Assembly (NCBI GenBank): GCA_022453515.1
Contig: JAJNNY010000047.1
Coordinates: 124,001 to 188,000, forward strand
Source of the DNA: Astrocystis sublimbata
Taxonomy: Eukaryota > Ascomycota > Sordariomycetes > Xylariales > Xylariaceae
DNA length: 64,000 bases
Reading direction: 5' to 3'
The notes under the pieces are model-generated. The model made no database searches. It worked only from the letters and a program-made list of their open reading frames with translations, and was not told where the DNA came from. The position numbers were made by a program, and so were the translations under genes. This document shows positions 2,044 through 57,370 of the stretch, one piece after another. Numbering within the stretch: the stretch's first letter is position 1; each line of letters begins with the position of its first letter.

Positions 2044-4629
2044 CTAACTCATCCCTTGCTTCCCCATCCTTGATAACTTCCACGAATCAGAATCCGCAGG
2101 CTCGACTTCTTCAGCAAGGTCGACTGTCTGGTCGGTAAAGTATTGGGAAATTTCCAATGCACGACCCTCGCACGTGACCAGAAGCTTGAACGTCATCTTA
2201 TCATGGTCCTTTACCAACTGTGTCAACTTCCCCACGATCTCGTGTACATCATTAAAATGCGATCCGATCTCGTATCGTGAAAGGTCGTCAATGATACAAA
2301 GGAGCACACTTTTGGGGGGGATCTGAAACGTCAAGATACGGAAGATCTTGATTAGAACTTTGAGTCGCAGATTCCTCACCCTCTTCCTGTCACGCTCGTT
2401 CAACTCCGATAGATCGATCTCAATTCCTCTTTCTGTCATCTCGTCGAGCAACTGGCCAACTAGGGTAGCCATAATTGTTCTCGTAACTGGTGATGGACTT
2501 CCGCTGCTGTCATAGAAAGGCGGATGCTGGCTGCAAAAGTATTTAACCACGTATGGACGTGCCTGCAGCGACTTCATCTGCTCAGAGACTCTGACCAAGT
2601 TGGCCATCACGAAACTGAGGGGTGAGATTCCTTCGGTAGCGGAGAGATCAGCTCTACCATTGATCAGCAGAGCCGACGACATCAAGTCACCCGACATGAA
2701 TTCCTCAAATTTAGGATGTATCGCCAATGCTGCTGCGCGTGCCTTCTTCATCTCGTCGAGTGCTAAACCCGATTCGAAGCAGGTATCAACATCGGAAGAT
2801 GTTATGCTTGGGTCGTAACACAACAACTGGATCACCAAAGAAACACCATAGGTACTCGCGACGGCACTTTGTTCACGTGTCTCAAGGTTGCCATGAAGCT
2901 TGCTCACGGGCTCAAGTGCATGATCAAATGATGAATCGCTGGTAGTTGCATCAGTTTGTTGTAGGAGAAGGTGAACCACATTGTTGGTTTCTATCCGATA
3001 AATTAGTCCATCAAGTACCCAAAGTGTTGATTATATGACGTAATTTAGAACTCACCTTCGGTTCTGTTGTTGCCTTGGTACAAGCTCAAGCCGGTTCGAA
3101 GCATCTTGTATAACTGTCCAAGCATGTGTACTGTTAGATCGCCGTTTTGGCTAACTTGCTCCAGCAGGCGACCTTGCTGATGTGTACGCCTATGAAGGCA
3201 TTGTAATGCTTCTTCTCGAAGCTTTTCAGCACACTTGGCCACCTCTTTCACACTTGAAGTAATCTCGTCTTTGTACGATTTTTGTTTCAGGAATGACTCC
3301 GAGAGTTTACCTGAAGAGTTGTCAATGGATTGACCTCGTCAAATTGGATAATCAGTTGGTCAAATTGCCCCGAGTCCAGTGGCAGGAAGCACTGAGCATG
3401 TGAAATTGACTAAGAAAGAAAAGGATTCTAAGATCGAACAACCGAGATCTGAGTTGGTAAGAGTGCGAATAATGGAAACTGAGAAATGTTTACAGCGGGA
3501 GAAAACACGTTGCAAGGAAAGTGCTGGCAAGTTGTAACACCCTGGCCAAGTAATGGGGCTTATGTCTTTCTCTTAGACAATTGACTCAAGGTGTTGTCAC
3601 ACTTTGGAAGATGTGACATAAACAATTTACAACTCATAAGAAAAAGACGCAATGTGTGAAGAGATGATGTGAAATACAAAATTCGCACAATGCCACTTAC
3701 GGAAGGCACTATCATTGAAGAATCGCATGATATTAATGAGAGCTCTCAATATGGTTCGGAAGAGTTCGAACGTTCGTTTCTCTAGATAATGATCTTTCGT
3801 ATCTGCGTAAATTTTGACGTATCTTTGCGAGTGTTCAATGATCTCAGGTATATCTGCAAGTGCGACGAATATTTCCTCTTGAACTTTCTTGTACCGGCCA
3901 GCGGCCTGATTAGCAGTAACTGATTAGCAGAAGATGGTAATGGGATTGTTGAGCACTGGGCCAGGGATAGCGCGTTATGCGCTGCTCCCTCGACAGCATA
4001 AAGCGTGAGTTTACCCCAATCATAAGCGTGAACACGCCAGCTATACTACCAGCCAGTTAGATGTGTCCTTATATAACAGTCTGGGTCACTGTGAGCTTAC
4101 CTGGAGCCATAGTCCCCTGCTGGCAGCAGGTCGAGCCAGCTTTGGAACACTTCGGAATTTCTGCCCAACTTGTCGATGCATTGCATAGATTTCGATATTC
4201 GTCGAGGAGAACTCTCCCACGAGACACTTATTTCTCGTACCTGTATCATGACCTGATTCCAGCTGCAACGTCGCAATTCCGAGACGTTCAGCCTGTTATC
4301 TTCTCTGTCAGTGAACTTACACTGCACTTTCTCCATCAAATTGAATAATTCATGTATGTCTGCATCTGCCTCTTTCCACATATTTGCACTAGTGTTGGGT
4401 AAGTCAAGACGTTGCGCGATGTGTTTTACTTAAGAGGGGTGAGTACCTACCTGATCACCTCTTCTTCCTTTCCTTGCTGCAACGAGACAAAGGTGCCACC
4501 CCGCTCGCTAAATACTGCATCACTCTGACATGACGTTATGATTTGAGTCTCGACGAAACGAGCAGCCTCATCAGGCGGTGCTCGAGGTCGCGAACTCAGA
4601 AACTCACTTCTCTCTCCAGTATTATTCAT
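2044..4629 (-). CDS. STAND-like protein with DUF7708-type N-terminus and degenerate NTPase region
   Basis: Six exons on the minus strand: 4629-4451, 4388-4101, 4045-4015 (31 nt), 3905-3701, 3310-3056 and 2990-2044. The frame holds through every junction and gives 634 residues. The N-terminal half carries the hallmark FQSWLDLLPAGDYGSSIAGV, followed by a helical stretch ending FELFRTILRALINIMRFFND, as in the helical domain (DUF7708-like) at the front of many fungal NLR/STAND proteins. The C-terminal half has SALLINGRADLSATEGISPL and a Walker-B-like LLCIIDDLSRYE, but no Walker A motif, so it is probably a non-hydrolysing relative of the NACHT-type core. The function is unknown; fungal relatives are treated as possible self/non-self or signalling proteins. 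The gene is divergent from the AAA ATPase with about 325 bp between start codons. The start is the first in-frame ATG; an upstream exon is possible. Confidence 0.72.
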
Positions 4630-46323: not shown

Positions 46324-49300
46324 ATGACGACAAGTGTGCCATTCGAAAGTCAATTGCGACAAGCAGTTGAAGACTTCAAAACCGAGGCTAGGCTCAGCAA
46401 AGACGAACTACAGCATTTTTCGCTCAGCAAGTTCGACGATGTTCAAAGAGTAATAGCCGGCATCCAGCAACAACAAGAGAAGAGTAGACGACTTATGTAT
46501 TTGAAACGAATTGAGCCGTTCTTGAAGATGATGACGGAATATGGCAAAGTAGTTGATACTTTTGTCAACGCATCGACACTATTGGCATTCATATGGGTGG
46601 GTAAATCATCCCAACTTCTCATCGAGTCAGATCGTTGATGCATAGTTCAGGGTCCTATGAAATTCATCATCATGGTAAGATTGATCAACCCCTTTGGATT
46701 GAAAGAGATCTAATCTAAGCTTTGGCAGGTTTCCTCGACCCTGCCCGCTGCTTTCGCAAGTCTGTTGAAGATGTATGAGCAGATAGGCGAGCAAGTACCA
46801 TCGCTATCACTGTACAAGGAACTTTTCGCCAACACTCCACATATGCAAGACGTCTTGGTGCTCATCTTTAAAGATATTTTGGCATTTCACCTAGAGGCAT
46901 TCAGATTCTTCAAGCAGAAAGGTCGCCCTCCATTGATAAGTATCTAAGATATATGCTAACATCTGTTTAGTTTGGAGGCAGCTATTCACGTCCACATGGA
47001 AAGGCTTCGAATTGAAGATCATGGATCTCCAAAACAACTTCAAGCGTCACTTTCAGCTCATTGAAAGCAGGGCGAGTTTAGTTGAGTATCAAGAGATCCA
47101 GAGTTTACAGCAAATTAATGCTGCCAAAATTCAGGAAATCCATCGTCAAAGCCTTTCTAGCCGGCGAGAAAGCGTGTTGCGTTGGCTTTCACCCGTTAAT
47201 ACGGAGGCAATTCATGAACGCCATGTGAGAGCTAGGTCTAGAAACCCAGCTGCCGGTAGGTGGCTTGTGGAAGACGGCCGGTTCCAAAAATGGTTTGATC
47301 CAGTGTATTGCTTGTCGCCCCTCATCTGGTTGAACGGGCCACCGGGAGCGGGTAGGTCATCTCAAAGGCATCCACAATCATGAGTATAATTCTAACTAGC
47401 CGAATAGGGAAAACAGTGCTTGCATCCGTGGTAATTGAGGAAGCAAGAAAAGTTTCTGATATTTCTGTGATATTTTTCTATTGTTTCAGGAACGATTCAA
47501 GAGACAGTTTCGTTTCGGTGGCGCGAGGGCTTCTCGCGCAGCTGGTTACCCACCACGACACACTAATTGACTTGCTGTATGGCGAAATGTCAACAAAAAG
47601 TGGTGAGGTTATCTTATCTAGCTCAGACACAGCAAAGCGCTTGCTTCAAGTTGCCCTTGGAATACGGAAGAGATACATCATCATCGACGGTCTGGACGAA
47701 TGTCCTCGAAATGAACGCAAAGACATCTGCGACTGGTTCTGCCAGGTTATCGACTCACTTCCACGAACGGATATGGACCAGATACGCTGCTTATTCATCA
47801 GTCAAGATGACGGTGTTGGACGTAAAGATATGTCCAACATTCCCGCCATCAGTTTTACGTTTCAAGATAATCGACCCGATATTCAAGCATATGCTACGGC
47901 TCGGCAAATTGAGATTGAACAAAAGTTTGGAACGTTTGGAGACAAATTGAACATTGCTGAAACTGTCACAATCAAATCCCAAGGTAATCGAAGATACCGA
48001 ATGTTGCCTACGTTTGGCTAAATTGAGTACAGGAATGTTCATTTTTGCAAGATGTGCGCTTGAGGAACTTTACCAACAGCCTTCACGCAACGACCTTTTA
48101 GCTGAATGGGGGGCTGAGACCTTTCCTACTGAGCTCGATGAACTGTAAGAAACATCGGTTTCGAGATCCTCATACACTCTTCACGAAAATTGACTGTGAC
48201 CTTTAGTTACGAACGTATTCTGAACCGAGTCCTACACAAAACCCCCCAGAGATCACAACAGGTGACGAGGCGATTACTGTCTTGGATCGCATGTGCTCAA
48301 AGACCTTTACGATGGCAAGAAATCCAAGCTGCAATAACTATAGACTTGCATAAAGAGAGTATCAACGATGAAAACTTGCGGCTAATAGATAACGTGAAGG
48401 ACTTTTGTGCTTCTTTAGTGTTCGTTGATGTGGATCATATCGTGGAACTGATTCATCCCACACTAAGACAGTGAGTCCAAACCTTCAACTAACAAGCTGT
48501 AATGTTTTACTAAAGGGCCCTTTTTATTTAGGTACCTCCTGAGATAAGAGCTAGTCAAACAACCTGATGTAGATCGAGAGCTCTGCGATCTAAGCTTAGC
48601 GTACCTCTGTTTTCCAGACATCAACCAAACGAATATTGGAGCCCGAATGGACGAGGCTGTTGAAGCGGGAGTGTTCGTATTCTACGACTACGCGGTGATC
48701 AATTGGTCTCGCCATCTTCTCTCCTGGCTTCCCCACTCGAAGGAGAGTGAAGTTCACGAGATGGGTGAACAACTCGAAGTAATGTTGGATCTTCACTTCG
48801 TGAAATCGACCAAGCTGCATCCGGTATCCCAAAAAATGCAAGAGAACCTTAAAATGTTGGAAGTGCTTGATATCTATGATTCCCTTACACAGATCATAGT
48901 TTGGACGCGTAAATCAAATCTCGCATGGATATCAGAAGACGACACACCCTCTCTCGATTTCCCAACAATCACGAGAAACTTTCGATCAGCTCTAGAACGA
49001 ATCTCAAGCAACGTTTCTTCCCCATCAACACAACACGCTTTGGAAGAATACTGCGGCTGTGAGCCTTTCAAGTGTCCGAAGCAATTTTGCCAGCACTTCT
49101 TTAGGGGATTTCGTAAGCCCGAAGACAGAGACAAACACGTTGCTCGTCACGACCGCGCCTTCACGTGCTTAGTTGAAGGATGTCCGATCACGACTATAGG
49201 ATGCACAAGCGAAGGAGATCTCACAAAGCACATGCGGGAAGCCCACCAAATTTTCGACTGCAACGACTTCCCAGAGCCCCCTGCGAAGGGCCCAAAGCTC

Positions 49301-49492
49301 CCGAAAACGCCTGCGACTTTCAAGTGTCATCAATGCCACAAAAGATTCACCCGTGGCAATAATTTACAATCTCACTTTATAACTCATACAGACGAGCGTC
49401 CCTTCGTATGTACAGTTTGTAGTAGAGCATTTGCCAGGAATGGAGATCGGCGACGGCACGAAAAACGCCACAAGGAAAATGTTCGTCTGTAG
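46324..49492 (+). pseudogene. NACHT (NLR-like STAND) gene with C2H2 zinc fingers, interrupted by an in-frame stop
   Basis: Exons 46324-46596, 46651-46674 (24 nt), 46729-46921, 46971-47351, 47408-47983, 48033-48144, 48207-48470 and 48532-49492 hold one frame. Order: a DUF7708-like helical domain (LAFIWGPMKFIIM, EQIGEQVPSL); Walker A GPPGAGKT near residue 286, its codons split by an intron; Walker B YIIIDGLDEC near 381; a winged-helix-like region LLSWIACAQRPLRWQEIQAA; then Cys/His fingers ending FKCHQCHKRFTRGNNLQSHF and FVCTVCSRAFARNGDRRRHE. A TAA at 48545-48547 stops the frame after codon 612, yet coding resemblance continues directly after it (ELVKQPDVDRELCDLSLAYL). So the full-length protein of about 926 residues is not made unless the stop is bypassed; a 612-residue NACHT protein may be. 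An acceptor at 48594 would also keep frame but drop conserved residues. The family senses non-self and triggers fungal cell death. Confidence 0.75.
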
Positions 49493-50000: not shown

Positions 50001-50945
50001 CTACAAAACCCACCCTATCTCGACTGTTTGTTCATCAACAATGTCAAGCTCATGTTCCGATGTTGGGATGTCAGACTCTCCCAGGTCCAAAACTTCTTCT
50101 CCGTCCCCAGCCCTCCCTACATACTCATCATCGACCATAGTAGCCCCTTTATTGAACTCGTTTGAAGTCAACCCGCCGGGTCTCCGAAGTAGCCAATGCT
50201 TTTTATATACCAGCTTGCGCACTCTTATTCCTGCGATGAAATCTGTGGAACTTTGAAAAGCTACCTCGTCTCTCGTCTCTCTCGCCATGCTGACCTTCGG
50301 GCCAACTTCAAAGGGTACGCCTACAAGGGGGTGTACGCCAACTTCCAAGACGGCCCCCCTTTCCTTGGACTTGGCAGCTTTGGCTCTTGGACCTCGTGCT
50401 ATCTTCAGCCCGGTAACCACTATAAATATTTGTGAGCAGCTATCTTTGGGAGTAAGTGCTACTATCGGAGTATTGTACTTAGTCGATGACCTGACTAGTA
50501 AGAAGCACTCACAGTATACAGGCTCATAGCCAGTCCCTTCGATGTATTCCTTCACATCCCCCATAGCCATGCTTTCCCTCAGGTACTCCGGAGAAGGGGC
50601 GAAGTAAATGGTGTCGAGCTTGCGGACGCTCAATACATCCATATCGCTTTTCCCATGTTTCCCGGACACCTCACCACCAACGCCCCCGAGACCCATAAGC
50701 TTGGCCACGACTCCGTATTCTCCGGACCGCAGACGTGAGCGAGTAGCTTCGAACCCCTCCTGGTGGCTGCAAAAGAGCTGGTTGTGAGGGATCGGTAGTC
50801 GGCATTCTTCGTTGATTGGCGGCTCGTCTGCGTTGGCGATGTCTATGATGAGAGACCCGAGCTCGAGAAGACCACCTGCGTCTGGAGGGTTGATGGAGAA
50901 ATTAGGGGCGCGGTGGTATTTGGGGACGAGAGACGTGCTAGCCAT
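50001..50945 (-). CDS. Fungal gasdermin-like protein (HET-Q1/RCD-1 family)
   Basis: Two exons on minus, 50945-50513 and 50419-50001, give 283 residues. The 93-nt intron (GTGAGT...TATAG) is a multiple of three and has no stop, so it is easy to miss. Removing it yields YEPVYLVTGLKIARG, a core motif of the family. Other marks are a start with LVPKYHRAPNFSI, CRLPIPHNQLFCSHQEGF, LDTIYFAPSPEYL, a pair of beta-strand segments EVGVHPLVGVPFEVGPKVS, and DFIAGIRVRKLVYKK. The last 65 or so residues are acidic and likely form the inhibitory tail. Family members are kept inactive by this tail; a protease removes it and the N-terminal part permeabilises the plasma membrane and kills the cell. The length is close to HET-Q1. 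The neighbouring S8 protease gene supports the call strongly. Pore activity is inferred. Confidence 0.82.
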   Translation of the reverse strand: MASTSLVPKYHRAPNFSINPPDAGGLLELGSLIIDIANADEPPINEECRLPIPHNQLFCSHQEGFEATRSRLRSGEYGVVAKLMGLGGVGGEVSGKHGKSDMDVLSVRKLDTIYFAPSPEYLRESMAMGDVKEYIEGTGYEPVYCECFLLVRSSTKYNTPIVALTPKDSCSQIFIVVTGLKIARGPRAKAAKSKERGAVLEVGVHPLVGVPFEVGPKVSMARETRDEVAFQSSTDFIAGIRVRKLVYKKHWLLRRPGGLTSNEFNKGATMVDDEYVGRAGDGEEVLDLGESDIPTSEHELDIVDEQTVEIGWVL

Positions 50946-51333
50946 GATTCTTCCAAGTTACAAAGTCGTCAATCTCGCATAGAGGATTCTAGCTGCGCGA
51001 AAATAGCGGCTTAGGGAGGAGTTCAAGTCCACTGCGGGGTTCCAGATATCGAGGTAGTATTTTGAGGCTGAGCTTACGCACATTGCAGCCAGGATGATCT
51101 ACAGCCGTCTAATCAGAATGATAGCAAATGGTATTAACTTGAATTGAACTAAAGTCATTCATAAGTTATGCAGCGCTACAAGAGGAAAGTAAAAGAGCTG
51201 AGAGTCAATAAATATATATTTATCTCATCCTAAGACCTTGTTCGTAGAGTACAATGCCATCTATTAATTACATCTATGTTCATTATATATCTCACTGATG
51301 GCACCGGCTGCCTTTCATGTGTTAATGTTTCGT
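50946..51333. promoter_or_regulatory. Spacer between S8 protease and gasdermin
   Basis: About 390 bp between the stop of the protease and the start of the gasdermin, both on minus. It must contain the gasdermin promoter and the protease 3' UTR. It is AT-rich around 51190-51300. No specific element was recognised. Confidence 0.45.
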
Positions 51334-54136
51334 TCATAGCCCCTCAAGAACATCTTGAATGTCCCTGCCGACTTCATCGAGGCTCTTGCCATCAGCAAAC
51401 AGGTTCTGAGGCTGGAGATAGTCATATCCATCCCTCTCGGTACACATGTCTTCAAGAACAGCGCACATGCCCTCGAACCTCTTCAGTCGTTTCATATTCC
51501 CGGGCGATAGTCGACCCCGGCTGCCGGCAAACTCGAGCACGTTCGCGGCAATGCCAGCTGCCACGGGGGTTGCAAAGGATGTGCCTGATTTATATACTGT
51601 TTTGCCCTGCCACTTGGACTCAACAGCCACGCCAAGGGCCGAGAAGTTCAGAGCCTTTTTCAGTGGGCTGGGATTCATCGCCCCTTTATTCCCTTTGCCG
51701 TCGCAAGCGTGCACGCATATCACACCCGAGCCACGCGCGGGCCGCGATCGCCCTCTGTTACCTCCCTCGTTGGAAGCTGCAGCGAAAAGCAACTTGTCTG
51801 CCTTCAGCGCCCGGTCTATGGCGGCATCGATCTCGTCGTTCTTGTCGTAGTACCCGAATGACATGGAGATAATGTCTACGTTCCATTCCGTAACTGCGTA
51901 GTCGATTGCCTGCTAGTCGTTAAAACGGGAAACCCGAGATGGATGTGACATTTGCATGGGTTATAGTAGTCTGCACTTAAAGCTCGTTTGGGGTCTTCGA
52001 CGGTGGGTGGTAGGATGTTTCGAAAAGTCATAATGCTAACTTACCTTCGCAATAGAAGATAGGCGATCGCCATCAAGATGCTTCCCTTCACAGATCTTCG
52101 CAATGAATATTTCAGCCGATGGCGCCATCTTCAGAATCAAGCGAGCTACGTGGGTTCCGTGACTGTATGCGTCGCTGTGATCGGTCGGTCTAGATCCCAC
52201 AAAAGCTCGGCAATCACGTATTCTAGACGAACGGAGTGCACCTTTAATCATCTTATCAGTTGGGTCAACGCCTGTGTCAAGGATGGCGACCCGGATGCGA
52301 GGCGGCGACGGTGTGTTCGAAAGCGTCTCTGCAAACCCAGGTTGCCCCATACGTAATGATCGAATGTCATTGAGAAACGGCTCAAGGTTTTCCAATAGCT
52401 CCTTAGCGTATTGAACTTTGACATCATCACCACTTGTCTCGATATCGTCGAAAAGGTGCAATTTGGTCCGAGAAGATTTCCGTTTCTTCTGTCTTTTCGG
52501 GACCGAAAGAGCAGGGATGTTCTGGAACGCTTGCGCTGCCGCGCCAAAATTGGACACGAGTAGTTGGAACAGCGGGTTAACGACACACTTGTACAGCATG
52601 GCCAGGGATTTCATGTCCGGCTTAAATCCGGAGAGACTTGACCTCTCTACGATAGCCTCGAACTCTAGACACGACTTGGCAACTTGGCGATACCCGTCTG
52701 AGAGCTCTCCGACCCAGTCCTCGTCGTCTAGGATTCTCGCTAGTCGAACGACGTTGGATCTCTCGCCGGTTTCGAAAGATTCATCATCTTCAGTCCAGGG
52801 CACCTGCGCGTTGGCCTCTAGCTCTAGGATGAGGACGCCGAGAGCGGCAACATCTTCCGCTTGAGGTTGTCTCTCGTTGCCCGGTGCATCGCCAATAGTA
52901 CAGGAGATAAGGGGTCGCCGATTGTCGATGCCACTGTTGGGCGAAGGATACGGGAGGATAAATACATCATCTTGCCACTGTTGCTGGAGCCAGGGACTGC
53001 CATACAGCATGAACAAGGACCACGCGAGAAACACGCCGATAAGCTTCCTATCCAACTTCTTAAGTCGGAGAAAATTGCTGCGACTTGGCTCGGGCTGTGG
53101 GGTTACACCTAGAAGTAAGTCTTTAAGTCGGGGTAGCTGGTCACTTGCGCTATCCCAGCTTTGCATAATGGTTTCCCAGACAGCGGATAGACCGAACGAG
53201 ATACTCCGACTAGGAGGGTCAGGCTCTGTGCTGCTTGAGCAGACGCGATAATTATAGATAAGATCCTCACTCGAAAGCATGGCGCTAGTTGAACAAGTTA
53301 GAATACCGTGACAGCTCGCACTTGACTAAGGTGTAGACTTACAGATTGAAAAACGCAGGCTTCCAAGTATGTTCCTTGCACTTGCACAAGAGCATCTCTA
53401 TGAGCCCACTTTGGAATCCAGATAGGTGTAATCGCGCCAAGTGCTCTTCCTGGCATGCCACGGAGGCCGTCAACTGCGCGAAAAGAGTGGAGGATGCGGC
53501 GCAGAACTGATGAGCATCGTTGATCGCCTCAATCTCGGCCGCAGTATAGTCCTCCAAATCAACTTCAATGTTCCATCGGCTTGGCGCGTCATCTACCACG
53601 GATAATAGTACGTTCTCAAGTCTTCTTAGGTGGTCGCGACAGCGGTTCGTTACGGCGTGGGAGAGAGGAAGCATAAGGGACATTGTGTCCTGCGTACCAA
53701 GTTGTCGAAGCATATCAAGTCGGGGGAATGGGTTGATCGATTGCTTAACGTCCTGCTGCACCTGGGTCCTCGTATGTCAATGTATTGTTATAGGAATGAC
53801 TGAATGGGCGCTATTCTGACAAACCTCGGATAGGTTGGCATTATCCATTAACGTTGCCTCGAATATGTGCAGTAACTCGTCGAATGCAGCGACCAGACGA
53901 CTCTGGTCCTGGTCGACGCGATTTAGCTCGGCATGCTGAAGTTTGATGGGTAGGCTCTTGATATCTGATCGAAGAAGGGTTATGCTGTCCCGCATCAGTA
54001 GAGCATCTGCATCTTGTATGACCGGAGACTTCTGATCAGGCAAGTCTAAGTAATGCCGGCTACTGGGCGGAGGGGGGCAAATGACGGGGTGGACGGCCCG
54101 CAAAAGGTCGAGTCTGGCACGAACCACGGCGTTCAT
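51334..54136 (-). CDS. Subtilisin-like (S8) protease with DUF7580-type region, HET-Q2-like partner
   Basis: Four exons on minus, 54136-53825, 53761-53343, 53284-52045 and 51909-51334, give 848 residues. Residues 1 to about 290 are helical and without known motif. About 300-460 match the DUF7580 pattern seen at the front of fungal incompatibility proteins (LIGVFLAWSLFMLYGSPWLQ, DVAALGVLILELEA, LSDGYRQVAKSCLEFE). The protease domain follows, with the full triad: Asp580 in VAILDTGVD, His619 in SHGTHVAR, Ser768 in SGTSFATPVAAG, and oxyanion Asn704 in AAASNEGG. There is no signal peptide or propeptide pattern, so it acts inside the cell. It lies directly upstream of the gasdermin in the same direction, as expected for the protease that cuts it. 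The large N-terminal part probably senses or regulates. A cytosolic S8 protease with this layout is typical of fungal death loci. Confidence 0.85.
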
Positions 54137-54703
54137 TGATAATGATACAATGCATTATCTGTTTAGATGTTGACGAGCTCGGAAAGAGAGGAATTGCATT
54201 AAACTCTTCCTGTCTACTTTGTGAACAAAAGTAGGATTTTGCTTGAAGAGTGTGTAAGCTTGGTAATACCTCAGGCAATGACACTGGAGATGACGGGCTT
54301 CCCCGCTTCGAAGATCTTATCCCTGGCATGTATGGATGTCCAGCTGGCTTACGGCTGCAACGCGCCCCTCTGTAAGCCTCACCTCGACAACCGGTGTTTA
54401 ACCATGAAGATCTGAGCAAGCAGATCAAGGTGACTGCCACCAGATAGGGCAAGCCTAAAGTGTCATGATGTAAACTCCCACTTGTTTCACGATATATTGA
54501 TGGTCATTACATGCGGATCGCTTCAAGAGCTTACTCTTATTTCCTCCAAGCAAGTGTCGGACTTACTATGAACTGGGCTCCGTTGGAGGGAGCCGCATGC
54601 GTCAATAGAAGGCACTGCTCAAGAATCGGAAGCCATCAATTTCCATCCAATGCGCCTATAGTGCTCAGGACTTGACTATTCGCTGACACGGGGAGAGGCC
54701 AGT
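54137..54703. promoter_or_regulatory. Divergent promoter between S8 protease and C2H2 gene
   Basis: About 570 bp between the two start codons. No domain-bearing frame lies here. Shared control of the protease and the zinc-finger gene is possible but only inferred. Confidence 0.4.
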
Positions 54704-57370
54704 ATGGAAGGTCTCACTCTGCACAAGCGGCGCCGCCCAATGGAACTGGAGCCTAATCCGAAGTCTCGATCGCCTTCGTCCACTCCAGGCTCAATAACTT
54801 CGCACCTGAAATCCTGGCGATCCTCTCGCGATGATTACACGCCATATCCCCTATTCCAGAGGGATAAGCGAGCATCTTCAGTGCATTCAGATCTTTCTAA
54901 CCCAGTGCCAAAGATAACAGACACAACTCTGTATGATTTATCGGATAAATGCTATAGCGCGTTTGAGAGGTTGCTGGAAGCTGAAGGTGATATTCAATCA
55001 CCTACTGATGAGCCCGATTGTTCGGTTCGACAAGATCTACCTGGCCTGAAGAACAGCTTTTCGTTCTGGGTAGAATATACTGGTGCCCTCGCTCCTGTCG
55101 GTGCGTCTCTCGACGATCGGCTTGTTGGCTATGTGGAAATCAAAGAGATGATCATTGAGCTCCTTGAAATGGTGGAGAGACATGCTTTTCTGTGTGAGTG
55201 TAAACGTCTTATGACCTGCTGATCACCTTTGTATATTTTCCCTTCCCTTACAGAGACACTGACGCTTATGATCCAGTGGAAAGAATCAGCGCGTCCGAGG
55301 AACCATCCCGATGGGATCAGTCGTTGTCAGGCATTAGCGCTGCGCTTGACAGACTCCATTTCTTAGCAAGCGCTATACGAAAAGCTTCTTCCACGAGGAA
55401 GTTCGGAGAAGAGGTCCTGCTCAACCTCGAAACCGACGAGGAGGTTCTGTTCAAGATCACTGCCATCGCATATGTAAAATGGAAGTTCCCAAAGGCGAGG
55501 AAAGGTCTGAGAGAACATCTCGGATTCACAATCGCGGCTCGACGGAAACTGATGTCAAAGAAGAGTCACCACGCGAATAAACTTGCGACAAGACGTAGAC
55601 ACCCTACATCTGCCGACCTGGAGGGTGAATGGCCGGATCAGTCCGCGGAAATGTCGAACACTGCAGGGTTTCAATACGTGCCACCGCTGATGCCACGAGA
55701 AGAAAACACGTTATCGAAACGTCCTGCAGCTGGCACGGAGGTTACTCAGGCTTCGATACTCAACCCTCACTTGGTGGTCAAATACATCCACCACAGCAAG
55801 CCTACGCTATCCATTCGGAGTCAGGGCACATCACGTCGAGATGAGTCCTTAAAGCAAAGGTATCCTCCATTGCCAAAGGTCGAGGCAGGTGAGCGTCACG
55901 TGCCCTGCCCGTACTGTCGACAGCCGCTTCGAGCCGCTGAGCTCAGGGGCAGCGAAGGAGCCGACTTCTGGGAGTATGAGACCCCCCCCCCCTTATGCTG
56001 TCGGGTGCAACAATGATTCATCGATGCACTAATGACTGACAATATACTAATCATGTGATTATAGGCGCCACATTGACAACGATCTGCAGCCTTATGCCTG
56101 TATTTTTACTCAGTGTGTCGCGCAGTTCTTCGTGCATCGGTCGGACTGGGCTCAGCACATGAACACCGCTCATGGAACCGACTGGCCCCGCAGGGTGCAT
56201 TGCGCGACATGGTTTTGTGATCTAGGACATGCGCACGTGGCGGAGTTTGATAACGAGGCCGATTGGAGATCACACATGCGCGATGCAGCTGAGCATCCAG
56301 GCCGGAAGAAATCGCCGACTGAGGCCCAACTAAAGGCGTTAGAGGTGAAGAAACAGCAGTTTGCCCTCCGCGACGAATATGTCTGTCCTCTTTGTGAGGA
56401 AATTCCTGAAAAAATCAGCGTCGTCGGCGATAAGGGGAATCCAATGGACATGAAGAAGACCCTTGAGGACCACATTGCACGACATATTAAAGACTTATCG
56501 TTTATATCACTTCCAGTTCAAGAGGTTGGGGAGGGACATGAGACAGCAGACGACTCTAATACGTCAGATGATACTAAAACAAAAGTCTCAACTAGTGGAT
56601 CTGCTTTTTATCCACCTACAATATCTGAGTTGATGGCTACTATGTCGCTCCGGTCCGTTGATTGTCTCGACGGCCCTACAAGCACTAACATCCCCGGCGT
56701 TATTAACAAGGAAAATCGCTACACCACCTGGAAAAATCGGAGGAATAACAGCGACGATCACCATCCGTGGCGGGACAATACCTACTCTAGAGAGATGCGG
56801 CGTCGTGATATTGATGAATTCAAATTAGCTCTCAAGGGGCTATCGAGCCAAAGCCGAACGACGCAGAATGATACTGTCGACGCATGGCTGTACGATACCG
56901 ATCCGCTACATACTTCCTTAGACATCCCAATATCACTACAGGTCTCATCAACCGTTGCTACCGCAAGGCCCCAATTTGAGGATAACATCCATCAGCCTGA
57001 GCGCCTTAACACAAAGTTGGAACAAAAGGATCAGATCCAGATTGAACCGCGACCAACTCCAGAGGCACTTCTGAGTATGGAACCGGAAGCTCACTGGATC
57101 CCCGCAGAAATGAAGTGGCGGGACAACGGCGGACGTCGCCAACGAGATACATCCAATCAAGACACCATACTAGCCGACGGGTTTCAGAAAGGGCTTGGGA
57201 CCGTGTTCTCGCGTGCTCAGGTCAGAGATCCAGCCTCTCGCCGTCGTTCGATACACCCGGAAATAACCCAAACGAGACACCCGACTGAATCACTAACGTC
57301 CGGGGTAGATACAGATTACGATCTCACGCCCCTTCCTGGGGTACCCCCTCTACCAGGACAGCTAGAATAG
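54704..57370 (+). CDS. C2H2 zinc-finger protein, AcuF-like fungal family
   Basis: Three exons, 54704-55193, 55277-55973 and 56065-57370, give 830 residues. The N-terminal region (about 85-300) is helical: LSDKCYSAFERLLEAEGDIQ, FWVEYTGALAPVGASLDDRL and SLSGISAALDRLHFLASAIR, the pattern of a common fungal family. A zinc-binding part follows: HVPCPYCRQPL, then across the second junction FWERHIDNDLQPYACIFTQC with WAQHMNTAHG, a CATWFCDLGH segment, and YVCPLCEE with HIARHIKDLSF. This resembles the AcuF-like C2H2 module. The C-terminal 250 residues are disordered. The family function is unknown; members often sit near NLR and other incompatibility genes. A run of about ten C at 55981-55991 lies just inside the second intron. 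Confidence 0.75.

What the first reader, a model, noticed from the sequence alone, without database searches (positions are those of the whole stretch)
50001..54136. Gasdermin plus subtilisin-like protease pair: a candidate fungal regulated cell-death module
Seen: a 283-residue gene with gasdermin family motifs (VTGLKIARG, strand pair, acidic tail) lies 388 bp downstream of, and in the same direction as, an intracellular S8 protease with a full Asp/His/Ser triad and no signal peptide. Known: in Podospora anserina the adjacent het-Q1 (gasdermin) and het-Q2 (S8 protease) genes cause death when the protease removes the gasdermin tail, and many fungal gasdermin genes lie next to protease genes. 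Inference: this pair works the same way.
Basis: partly seen in the sequence, partly recalled or inferred. Interest (0 to 1): 0.92.

Follow-up and report, generated by a model that had tools for sequence, protein, structure and literature searches.

The report
Fungal gasdermin, protease and partner gene
A fungus carries a pore-forming death protein beside the protease that probably switches it on, which is a known type of pair, but here the protease also sits head-to-head with a zinc-finger gene in a repeated layout that may show how such death switches are controlled.

Summary
The window (Astrocystis sublimbata) has a spliced 283-aa gasdermin (50945-50001, -) 388 bp downstream of a spliced 848-aa protease gene (54136-51334, -) with a D580/H619/S768 triad. 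Sequence and fold support gasdermin membership. A 44-aa acidic tail follows a Met/Leu present in 34 of 34 aligned proteins, near where HET-Q1 is cut.

The interpretation needs correcting: het-Q1 and het-Q2 are idiomorphs, not neighbours, and HET-Q2 is a 388-aa S8 protein. Here both genes share one contig and the protease has a DUF7580 domain, so a restrained sensor protease is likelier than a copy of the Podospora system.

New here: the protease gene lies head-to-head with a C2H2-type gene. Of five DUF7580 genes over the Pfam cut-off in a genome search, four have such a gene head-to-head within about 0.6 kb and the fifth has one across an AT-rich block. Two DUF7580 genes (C135, C104) show no S8, so C2H2 + DUF7580 may be a control unit with exchangeable outputs. 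Cleavage and killing are inferred.

The parts
50001..50945 (-). Fungal gasdermin gene, 283 aa; exons 50945-50513 and 50419-50001, intron 50512-50420
   Evidence: Spliced product 100% identical to P0001; RCD-1-2 E 5e-8; HET-Q1 pore chain E 2.1e-5 by profile; fold match to RCD-1
50136..50138 (-). Candidate P1 residue M239 in NKGATMV (cleavage proposed between M239 and V240)
   Evidence: M or L in 34 of 34 aligned proteins, own included; 44 residues would be removed, against 40 after F238 in HET-Q1. Inference; not tested
50004..50135 (-). Acidic C-terminal tail, residues 240-283, putative inhibitory segment
   Evidence: Net charge -14; median -13 over the 34 aligned proteins
50082..50093 (-). VLDL/VVDL-type motif in the tail (resembles a SUMO-interacting motif; that name is recalled)
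   Evidence: Loose pattern in 32 of 34 aligned proteins, pattern chosen after looking, no control
51334..54136 (-). DUF7580-S8 protease gene, 848 aa; exons 54136-53825, 53761-53343, 53284-52045, 51909-51334
   Evidence: Spliced product 100% identical to P0035
52558..53509 (-). DUF7580 domain, residues 189-486 (span includes an intron)
   Evidence: Pfam PF24476 E 3.7e-23
52444..52455 (-). Linker motif LFDD, residues 521-524, between DUF7580 and S8
   Evidence: Motif of the form hydrophobic-F/Y-D-D in 12 of 13 aligned proteins, own included; role inferred only
51487..52296 (-). Peptidase S8 domain, residues 574-798, triad D580/H619/S768 (span includes an intron)
54137..54703 (.). 567-bp region between two divergent starts, possible shared promoter
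   Evidence: comparable gaps of 307-445 bp at C165, C141, C135 and C104, taken between first Met codons of frames assigned partly by eye
54704..57370 (+). Divergent C2H2-type gene: N-terminal block (exon 54704-55191) and zinc-finger block (frames 55254-56016 and 56051-57370); last intron not fixed
   Evidence: homologues head-to-head with DUF7580 genes elsewhere in the genome

Best explanation
The locus is a fungal pyroptosis-like death switch. The gasdermin is held off by its short acidic C-terminal tail. When the DUF7580-S8 protein is triggered, its subtilisin-like domain cuts at the end of the pore-forming domain, most likely after M239 in the conserved NKGATM-V segment. The N-terminal domain then oligomerises and perforates the cell's own plasma membrane. 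Because both genes sit on one contig, the protease must be restrained at rest; the DUF7580 part and the conserved LFDD linker are the likeliest restraint. Shown here: gene models, family and fold of the gasdermin, triad, conserved tail and junction, and clustering in this genome and, by contig and locus numbers, in relatives. Inferred: cleavage, site, pore, restraint, trigger. The divergent C2H2-type gene probably belongs to the same module as partner or upstream sensor (about 0.5).
Against: No experiment. The gasdermin model is of low confidence (124 of 283 residues under pLDDT 50), and much of the junction and tail is among the poor parts. The cleavage site rests on conservation and on distance from the C terminus; the HET-Q1 alignments stop before F238. 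The mirror-tree signal could simply follow species descent. Two of the 11 (Xylaria curta, Fusarium lateritium) show no gasdermin. The fifth gasdermin here (C164) has no S8 or DUF7580 match in the 8 kb read at the contig start, and DUF7580-S8 at C141 has no gasdermin found, so neither gene strictly needs the other nearby.
Confidence: 0.8

Rival explanations
1. Heterokaryon-incompatibility locus of the het-Q type: the two genes kill only when different strains fuse, with no internal sensor control.
For: Same protein families as het-Q1/het-Q2.
Against: Both genes are intact on one contig. HET-Q2 is given as 388 aa and S8 type; this protein is 848 aa with DUF7580. The review calls het-Q1/het-Q2 idiomorphs. 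The pair appears to be kept across genera.
Confidence: 0.1
2. The gasdermin is not activated by its neighbour but by partner mixing, as for RCD-1, or by another protease; the adjacency is historical.
For: Closest solved relatives are RCD-1-1 and RCD-1-2, which act by mixing of variants. The C164 gasdermin lies beside a C2H2-type gene with no S8 match in the 8 kb read.
Against: 4 of 5 gasdermins in this genome lie beside S8 genes; uniform-placement estimate 2.6e-10 (19 S8 genes assumed) to 2.5e-8 (60 assumed). Tail and junction are conserved in the 34 aligned proteins, as expected of a processed tail.
Confidence: 0.1
3. The C2H2-type gene is an unrelated neighbour (for example an ordinary transcription factor), and the module is the usual two-gene cluster.
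For: 3 of 12 C2H2 places have no DUF7580, S8 or gasdermin match in the stretches read (C36, C166, C161) and 2 of 12 were not read (C102, C119). No C2H2 match was seen in the stretches read around the C46 gasdermin-S8 pair. A single-sequence search with the window gene's N-terminal block found no other significant place. Clusters in other species could not be read.
Against: Four of five DUF7580 genes found by a family search have it head-to-head within about 0.6 kb. Family members are joined in one frame to NB-ARC (C141) or ankyrin repeats (C2), unlike ordinary transcription factors.
Confidence: 0.45

Closest known systems
HET-Q1 / HET-Q2 of Podospora anserina
   Same: Gasdermin of similar length (283 against 278 aa) with a short C-terminal tail; S8 protease as activator
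   Different: het-Q1 and het-Q2 are idiomorphs, here both genes are on one contig; HET-Q2 is 388 aa, too short for the 848-aa architecture seen here (its sequence was not compared)
Q2L protease-gasdermin two-gene clusters of fungi
   Same: Gasdermin gene beside an S8 multidomain protease gene; reviews describe about 80% clustering, many receptor architectures, and some proteases fused to predicted kinase-like domains
   Different: DUF7580-S8 architecture and a divergent C2H2-type gene that recurs with DUF7580; the main texts of two reviews hold 0 occurrences of 'zinc finger' and 'C2H2'
RCD-1-1 / RCD-1-2 of Neurospora crassa
   Same: Same gasdermin fold, best sequence and structure match
   Different: RCD-1 acts by mixing of two allelic variants; here a protease gene lies beside it
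Bacterial gasdermin-protease gene pairs
   Different: Sequence relation at noise level (7n50 E 0.1)

Membership tests
Fungal gasdermins (fGSDM) | Sequence homology to RCD-1 / HET-Q1 | tested here: met
   RCD-1-2 E 5e-8; profile E 1.3e-12, HET-Q1 chain 2.1e-5
Fungal gasdermins (fGSDM) | Gasdermin N-terminal fold | tested here: met
Fungal gasdermins (fGSDM) | Short C-terminal inhibitory tail | tested here: inconclusive
   44-aa acidic tail, median net charge -13 over 34 aligned proteins; inhibition not testable here
Fungal gasdermins (fGSDM) | Membrane pore formation and cell death | not testable with these tools
   Needs expression
Q2L S8 proteases controlling gasdermins | S8 domain with intact triad | tested here: met
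   PF00082 E 2e-24; D580/H619/S768
Q2L S8 proteases controlling gasdermins | Gene within 10 kb of a gasdermin gene | tested here: met
   388 bp
Q2L S8 proteases controlling gasdermins | Cleaves the neighbouring gasdermin | not testable with these tools
   Inferred
HET-Q2 proper | About 388-aa S8 protein | tested here: not met
   848 aa with DUF7580; HET-Q2 length from a review
het-Q1/het-Q2 allorecognition locus | Gasdermin and protease are idiomorphs | tested here: not met
   Both genes on one contig; one assembly only, no population data
NLR-type sensor proteases | NB-ARC or NACHT domain in the protease protein | tested here: not met
   Pfam lists only S8 and DUF7580 at E up to 1
Kinase-like fold for DUF7580 | Detectable relation to protein kinases | tested here: inconclusive
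   hhalign against five own-genome kinases: probability 0.1; domain could not be folded alone; fold search filled by subtilases

The most novel reading that the evidence does not exclude
C2H2-type protein plus DUF7580 protein, encoded head-to-head from a shared 0.3-0.6 kb promoter region, is a portable fungal sensor/control unit plugged into different death outputs: a fused S8 protease that cuts a gasdermin (window, C165, C2), or a DUF7580 protein that has no S8 match and a hydrophobic, possibly membrane-targeting N-terminus (C135, C104). The C2H2 partner acts as the sensor, with interchangeable NB-ARC or ankyrin modules. This would join pyroptosis-like and necroptosis-like outputs under one control unit.
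Probability: 0.35. Interest if true: 0.78.

Novelty: new variant of a known kind. Interest (0 to 1): 0.5.

Why it matters
A 2025 review calls the nature of the stimuli that activate these putative fungal sensors a major open question (PMC12881547, section 20 read). A recurring partner gene head-to-head with the protease gives a concrete candidate for the sensor and a genetic test. If the same pair also controls DUF7580 proteins without a protease, different fungal death outputs may share one control unit. The gasdermin-protease pair alone is an ordinary new member of a well described class.

Tried and rejected
Kinase reading of DUF7580: helices around residues 320-336 and 386-401 look like a kinase C-lobe by eye, and the 2025 review mentions kinase-like fusions. 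But hhalign of 18 DUF7580 sequences against five kinases from the same genome gave probability 0.1, no better than the S8 control (0.2). Not claimed.

The 284-aa ORF beside the C141 DUF7580-S8 gene (L023:2836-3687) was tried as a divergent gasdermin: hhalign probability 3.1 (the C2 paralogue scores 99.3), and the PDB search gave two chance hits and no gasdermin. Not claimed.

HeLo-like N-terminus of the C135 and C104 DUF7580 proteins: Pfam gave no family for the first and two chance matches (E 0.2 and 0.27) for the second. Visual and recalled only.

SUMO-interacting-motif reading of the VVDL-type tail motif: pattern made after looking, no control; one paper search (gasdermin, SUMO-interacting motif, fungal) found 0. 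A lead only.

LFDD linker as an inhibitory segment like that of intracellular subtilisins: some matches to such precursors begin at residues 516-518, but residues 505-521 have pLDDT under 50 and 521-530 a mean of about 55. A lead only.

Limits of the clustering counts: the estimates assume uniform placement and independent loci, which block duplication would break, so they only speak against coincidence; the 19 and 60 S8 genes and the 60 and 150 C2H2 genes used there are assumptions (one search lists 23 S8 match rows). Genome searches score only the best candidates, so all counts of families are lower bounds: the DUF7580 search missed C104, and the gasdermin search missed C164. The C2H2 profiles were built in part from the window, C165 and C141 genes, and their E-values are for the small set of fetched frames. 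C104 was found through its C2H2 gene and is left out of the five-gene count. C117 is below the Pfam cut-off and has no C2H2 match in its 9.9 kb. Start-to-start gaps use the first Met of the first frame; the 5' exons of the DUF7580 genes at C141, C135, C104 and C2 were assigned by eye. Without them, matched DUF7580 and C2H2 frames still lie within about 1.4 kb at C165, C141, C135 and C104.

Paper searches behind 'not seen in print': DUF7580: 0 papers; acuF-like with C2H2: 0. Several of these were seen as listings only. The 2022 primary paper on HET-Q1/HET-Q2 is not held and was not read; PMC9815663 was seen as a listing only.
Full report
What is there. On the minus strand the window holds two intact, intron-containing genes. 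Splicing one 93-bp intron gives a 283-aa protein, and splicing three introns gives an 848-aa protein. Each is 100% identical to a public Astrocystis sublimbata protein on a contig of 296,260 bases, the length of the contig that holds the window. They run in the same direction with 388 bp between them.

The tail. In all 34 aligned proteins Met or Leu stands at the position of M239 in the NKGATMV segment. What follows is a median 45 residues with median net charge -13, while the part before has a median of +1.5. HET-Q1 loses 40 residues after F238 (PMC10989679, passages seen). Subtilases favour large hydrophobic P1 residues (recalled). I therefore propose cleavage after M239; this is inference, and the HET-Q1 alignments do not reach its own site. 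A VVDL-type motif lies 11-14 residues into the tail in 32 of 34, by a pattern chosen after looking.

The pair elsewhere. Three of these have neighbouring locus numbers (X. multiplex, F. piperis, and T. guizhouense, whose two tags differ by ten). Two of the eight are on one 6.6-Mb F. oxysporum contig, which is weak evidence. A ninth has gasdermin sequence in its own gene model, seen in the alignment. Two (Xylaria curta, Fusarium lateritium) show none. In seven species pairs the identity matrices correlate at r 0.81, reached by 2 of 5040 permutations, the identity included; shared descent could give this too.

The pair in this genome. Five gasdermins were found: four places and a fifth. Four of five lie beside an S8 gene: the window; C165 and C2, convergent; C46, divergent, whose protease has no DUF7580 match. 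Uniform placement would give this with probability about 2.6e-10 to 2.5e-8, for 19 to 60 S8 genes assumed. The fifth, near the start of contig C164, lies upstream of a C2H2-type gene, with no S8 or DUF7580 match in the 8 kb read. A DUF7580-S8 gene at C141 has no gasdermin match in the stretches read.

A third gene. The DUF7580-S8 gene is 567 bp from a divergent gene (54704-57370, +) with an N-terminal block and a C2H2-type zinc-finger block. A genome search with the DUF7580 family found six places, five over the cut-off. Local profiles show a gene of this C2H2 family head-to-head at four of the five, with start-to-start gaps of 567 (window), 307 (C165), 445 (C141) and 417 bp (C135). At the fifth (C2) the C2H2 gene is 9.9 kb away across a block of 30-38% GC. 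A further DUF7580 gene over the Pfam cut-off (C104), found through its C2H2 neighbour, has a gap of 383 bp. C117, below the cut-off, has no C2H2 match in the 9.9 kb read. The single-block searches and the local profiles together give 12 C2H2 places: five head-to-head with DUF7580 within 0.6 kb, one (C2) across the block, one beside a gasdermin (C164), three with neither in the stretches read (C36, C166, C161), two not read (C102, C119); the C119 match is weak. Of the ten places read, eight match the N-terminal profile too; C36 and C161 do not. A single-sequence search with the window gene's N-terminal block found no other significant place. Even with 150 such genes assumed, four of five within 2 kb has probability about 2e-7 under uniform placement. 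The blocks may descend from one ancestral block, but then the layout has been kept.

What the third gene may do. Members of the C2H2 family carry different C-terminal parts in the same open frame: an NB-ARC domain at C141 and ankyrin repeats at C2. NLRs and ankyrin repeats are named in the reviews as parts of fungal sensors. Two DUF7580 genes (C135, C104) have no S8 match in the stretches read, and what I take for their first exons start with a hydrophobic stretch. My boldest reading is therefore that C2H2 plus DUF7580 is a control unit with exchangeable outputs, one being S8 plus gasdermin.

A 2025 review states that het-Q1 and het-Q2 are idiomorphs (PMC12881547, section 20 read). A 2024 review gives HET-Q2 as a 388-aa S8 protease (PMC10989679, passages seen). 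A 2023 review uses het-Q1/het-Q2 as the example of a sensor made constitutively active by rearrangement (PMC10197012, passages seen). The window's pair with a large N-terminal region in the protease fits the regulated, presumably ancestral, state and not the allorecognition derivative.

Against known systems. Clustering of gasdermin and S8 genes is well known (about 80% of fungal gasdermins near a protease gene), and fusion of proteases to predicted kinase-like domains is mentioned. I saw no mention of a C2H2-type partner: the main texts of the 2023 and 2025 reviews hold 0 occurrences of 'zinc finger' and of 'C2H2', and DUF7580 occurs in 0 held papers. The primary 2022 paper is not held, so the architecture may be described there under another name.

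Verdict. The pair is real and is a new member of a known kind. The C2H2/DUF7580 layout makes the locus a new variant worth a test. Cleavage, pore formation, restraint and trigger are all inferred.

Noticed in passing
window 46940-49492 (+): A STAND/NLR-like gene (NPHP3_N E 2.2e-19 in frame 47356-48021, C2H2 fingers in frame 48548-49492) lies convergent to the gasdermin, 508 bp between stops. Its exons were not resolved.
   Followed up: no
L044 (C164:663-1598 and 2078-3981): A fifth gasdermin lies directly upstream of a C2H2-type gene of the same family, with no S8 or DUF7580 match in the 8 kb at the contig start.
   Followed up: partly
L021 (C46:307512-310786): A gasdermin divergent from an S8 gene whose 374-aa S8 frame has no DUF7580 match and with no C2H2 match in the stretches read; nearest in layout to HET-Q2.
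   Followed up: partly
L023:2836-3687: A 284-aa ORF convergent with the C141 DUF7580-S8 gene has an acidic tail and a length like gasdermins but no detectable relation; it may be another effector.
   Followed up: partly
L022/L028/L042 (C2:411000-419200): A block of 30-38% GC about 8 kb long separates the C2H2 gene from the DUF7580-S8 gene at C2, as if inserted between them. Its content was not identified.
   Followed up: partly
P0039, P0040 (Fusarium oxysporum): One F. oxysporum contig length holds two DUF7580-S8 proteins; P0039 is closer to the Xylariales proteins (0.55-0.60) than to F. piperis (0.49), which suggests old paralogues or horizontal transfer, though the partner gasdermin does not show this clearly (0.54-0.62 against 0.59).
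   Followed up: partly
P0045 (Colletotrichum plurivorum): A 1134-aa gene model runs from DUF7580-S8 into gasdermin sequence, and lacks the catalytic Ser; probably two neighbouring genes joined by annotation.
   Followed up: no
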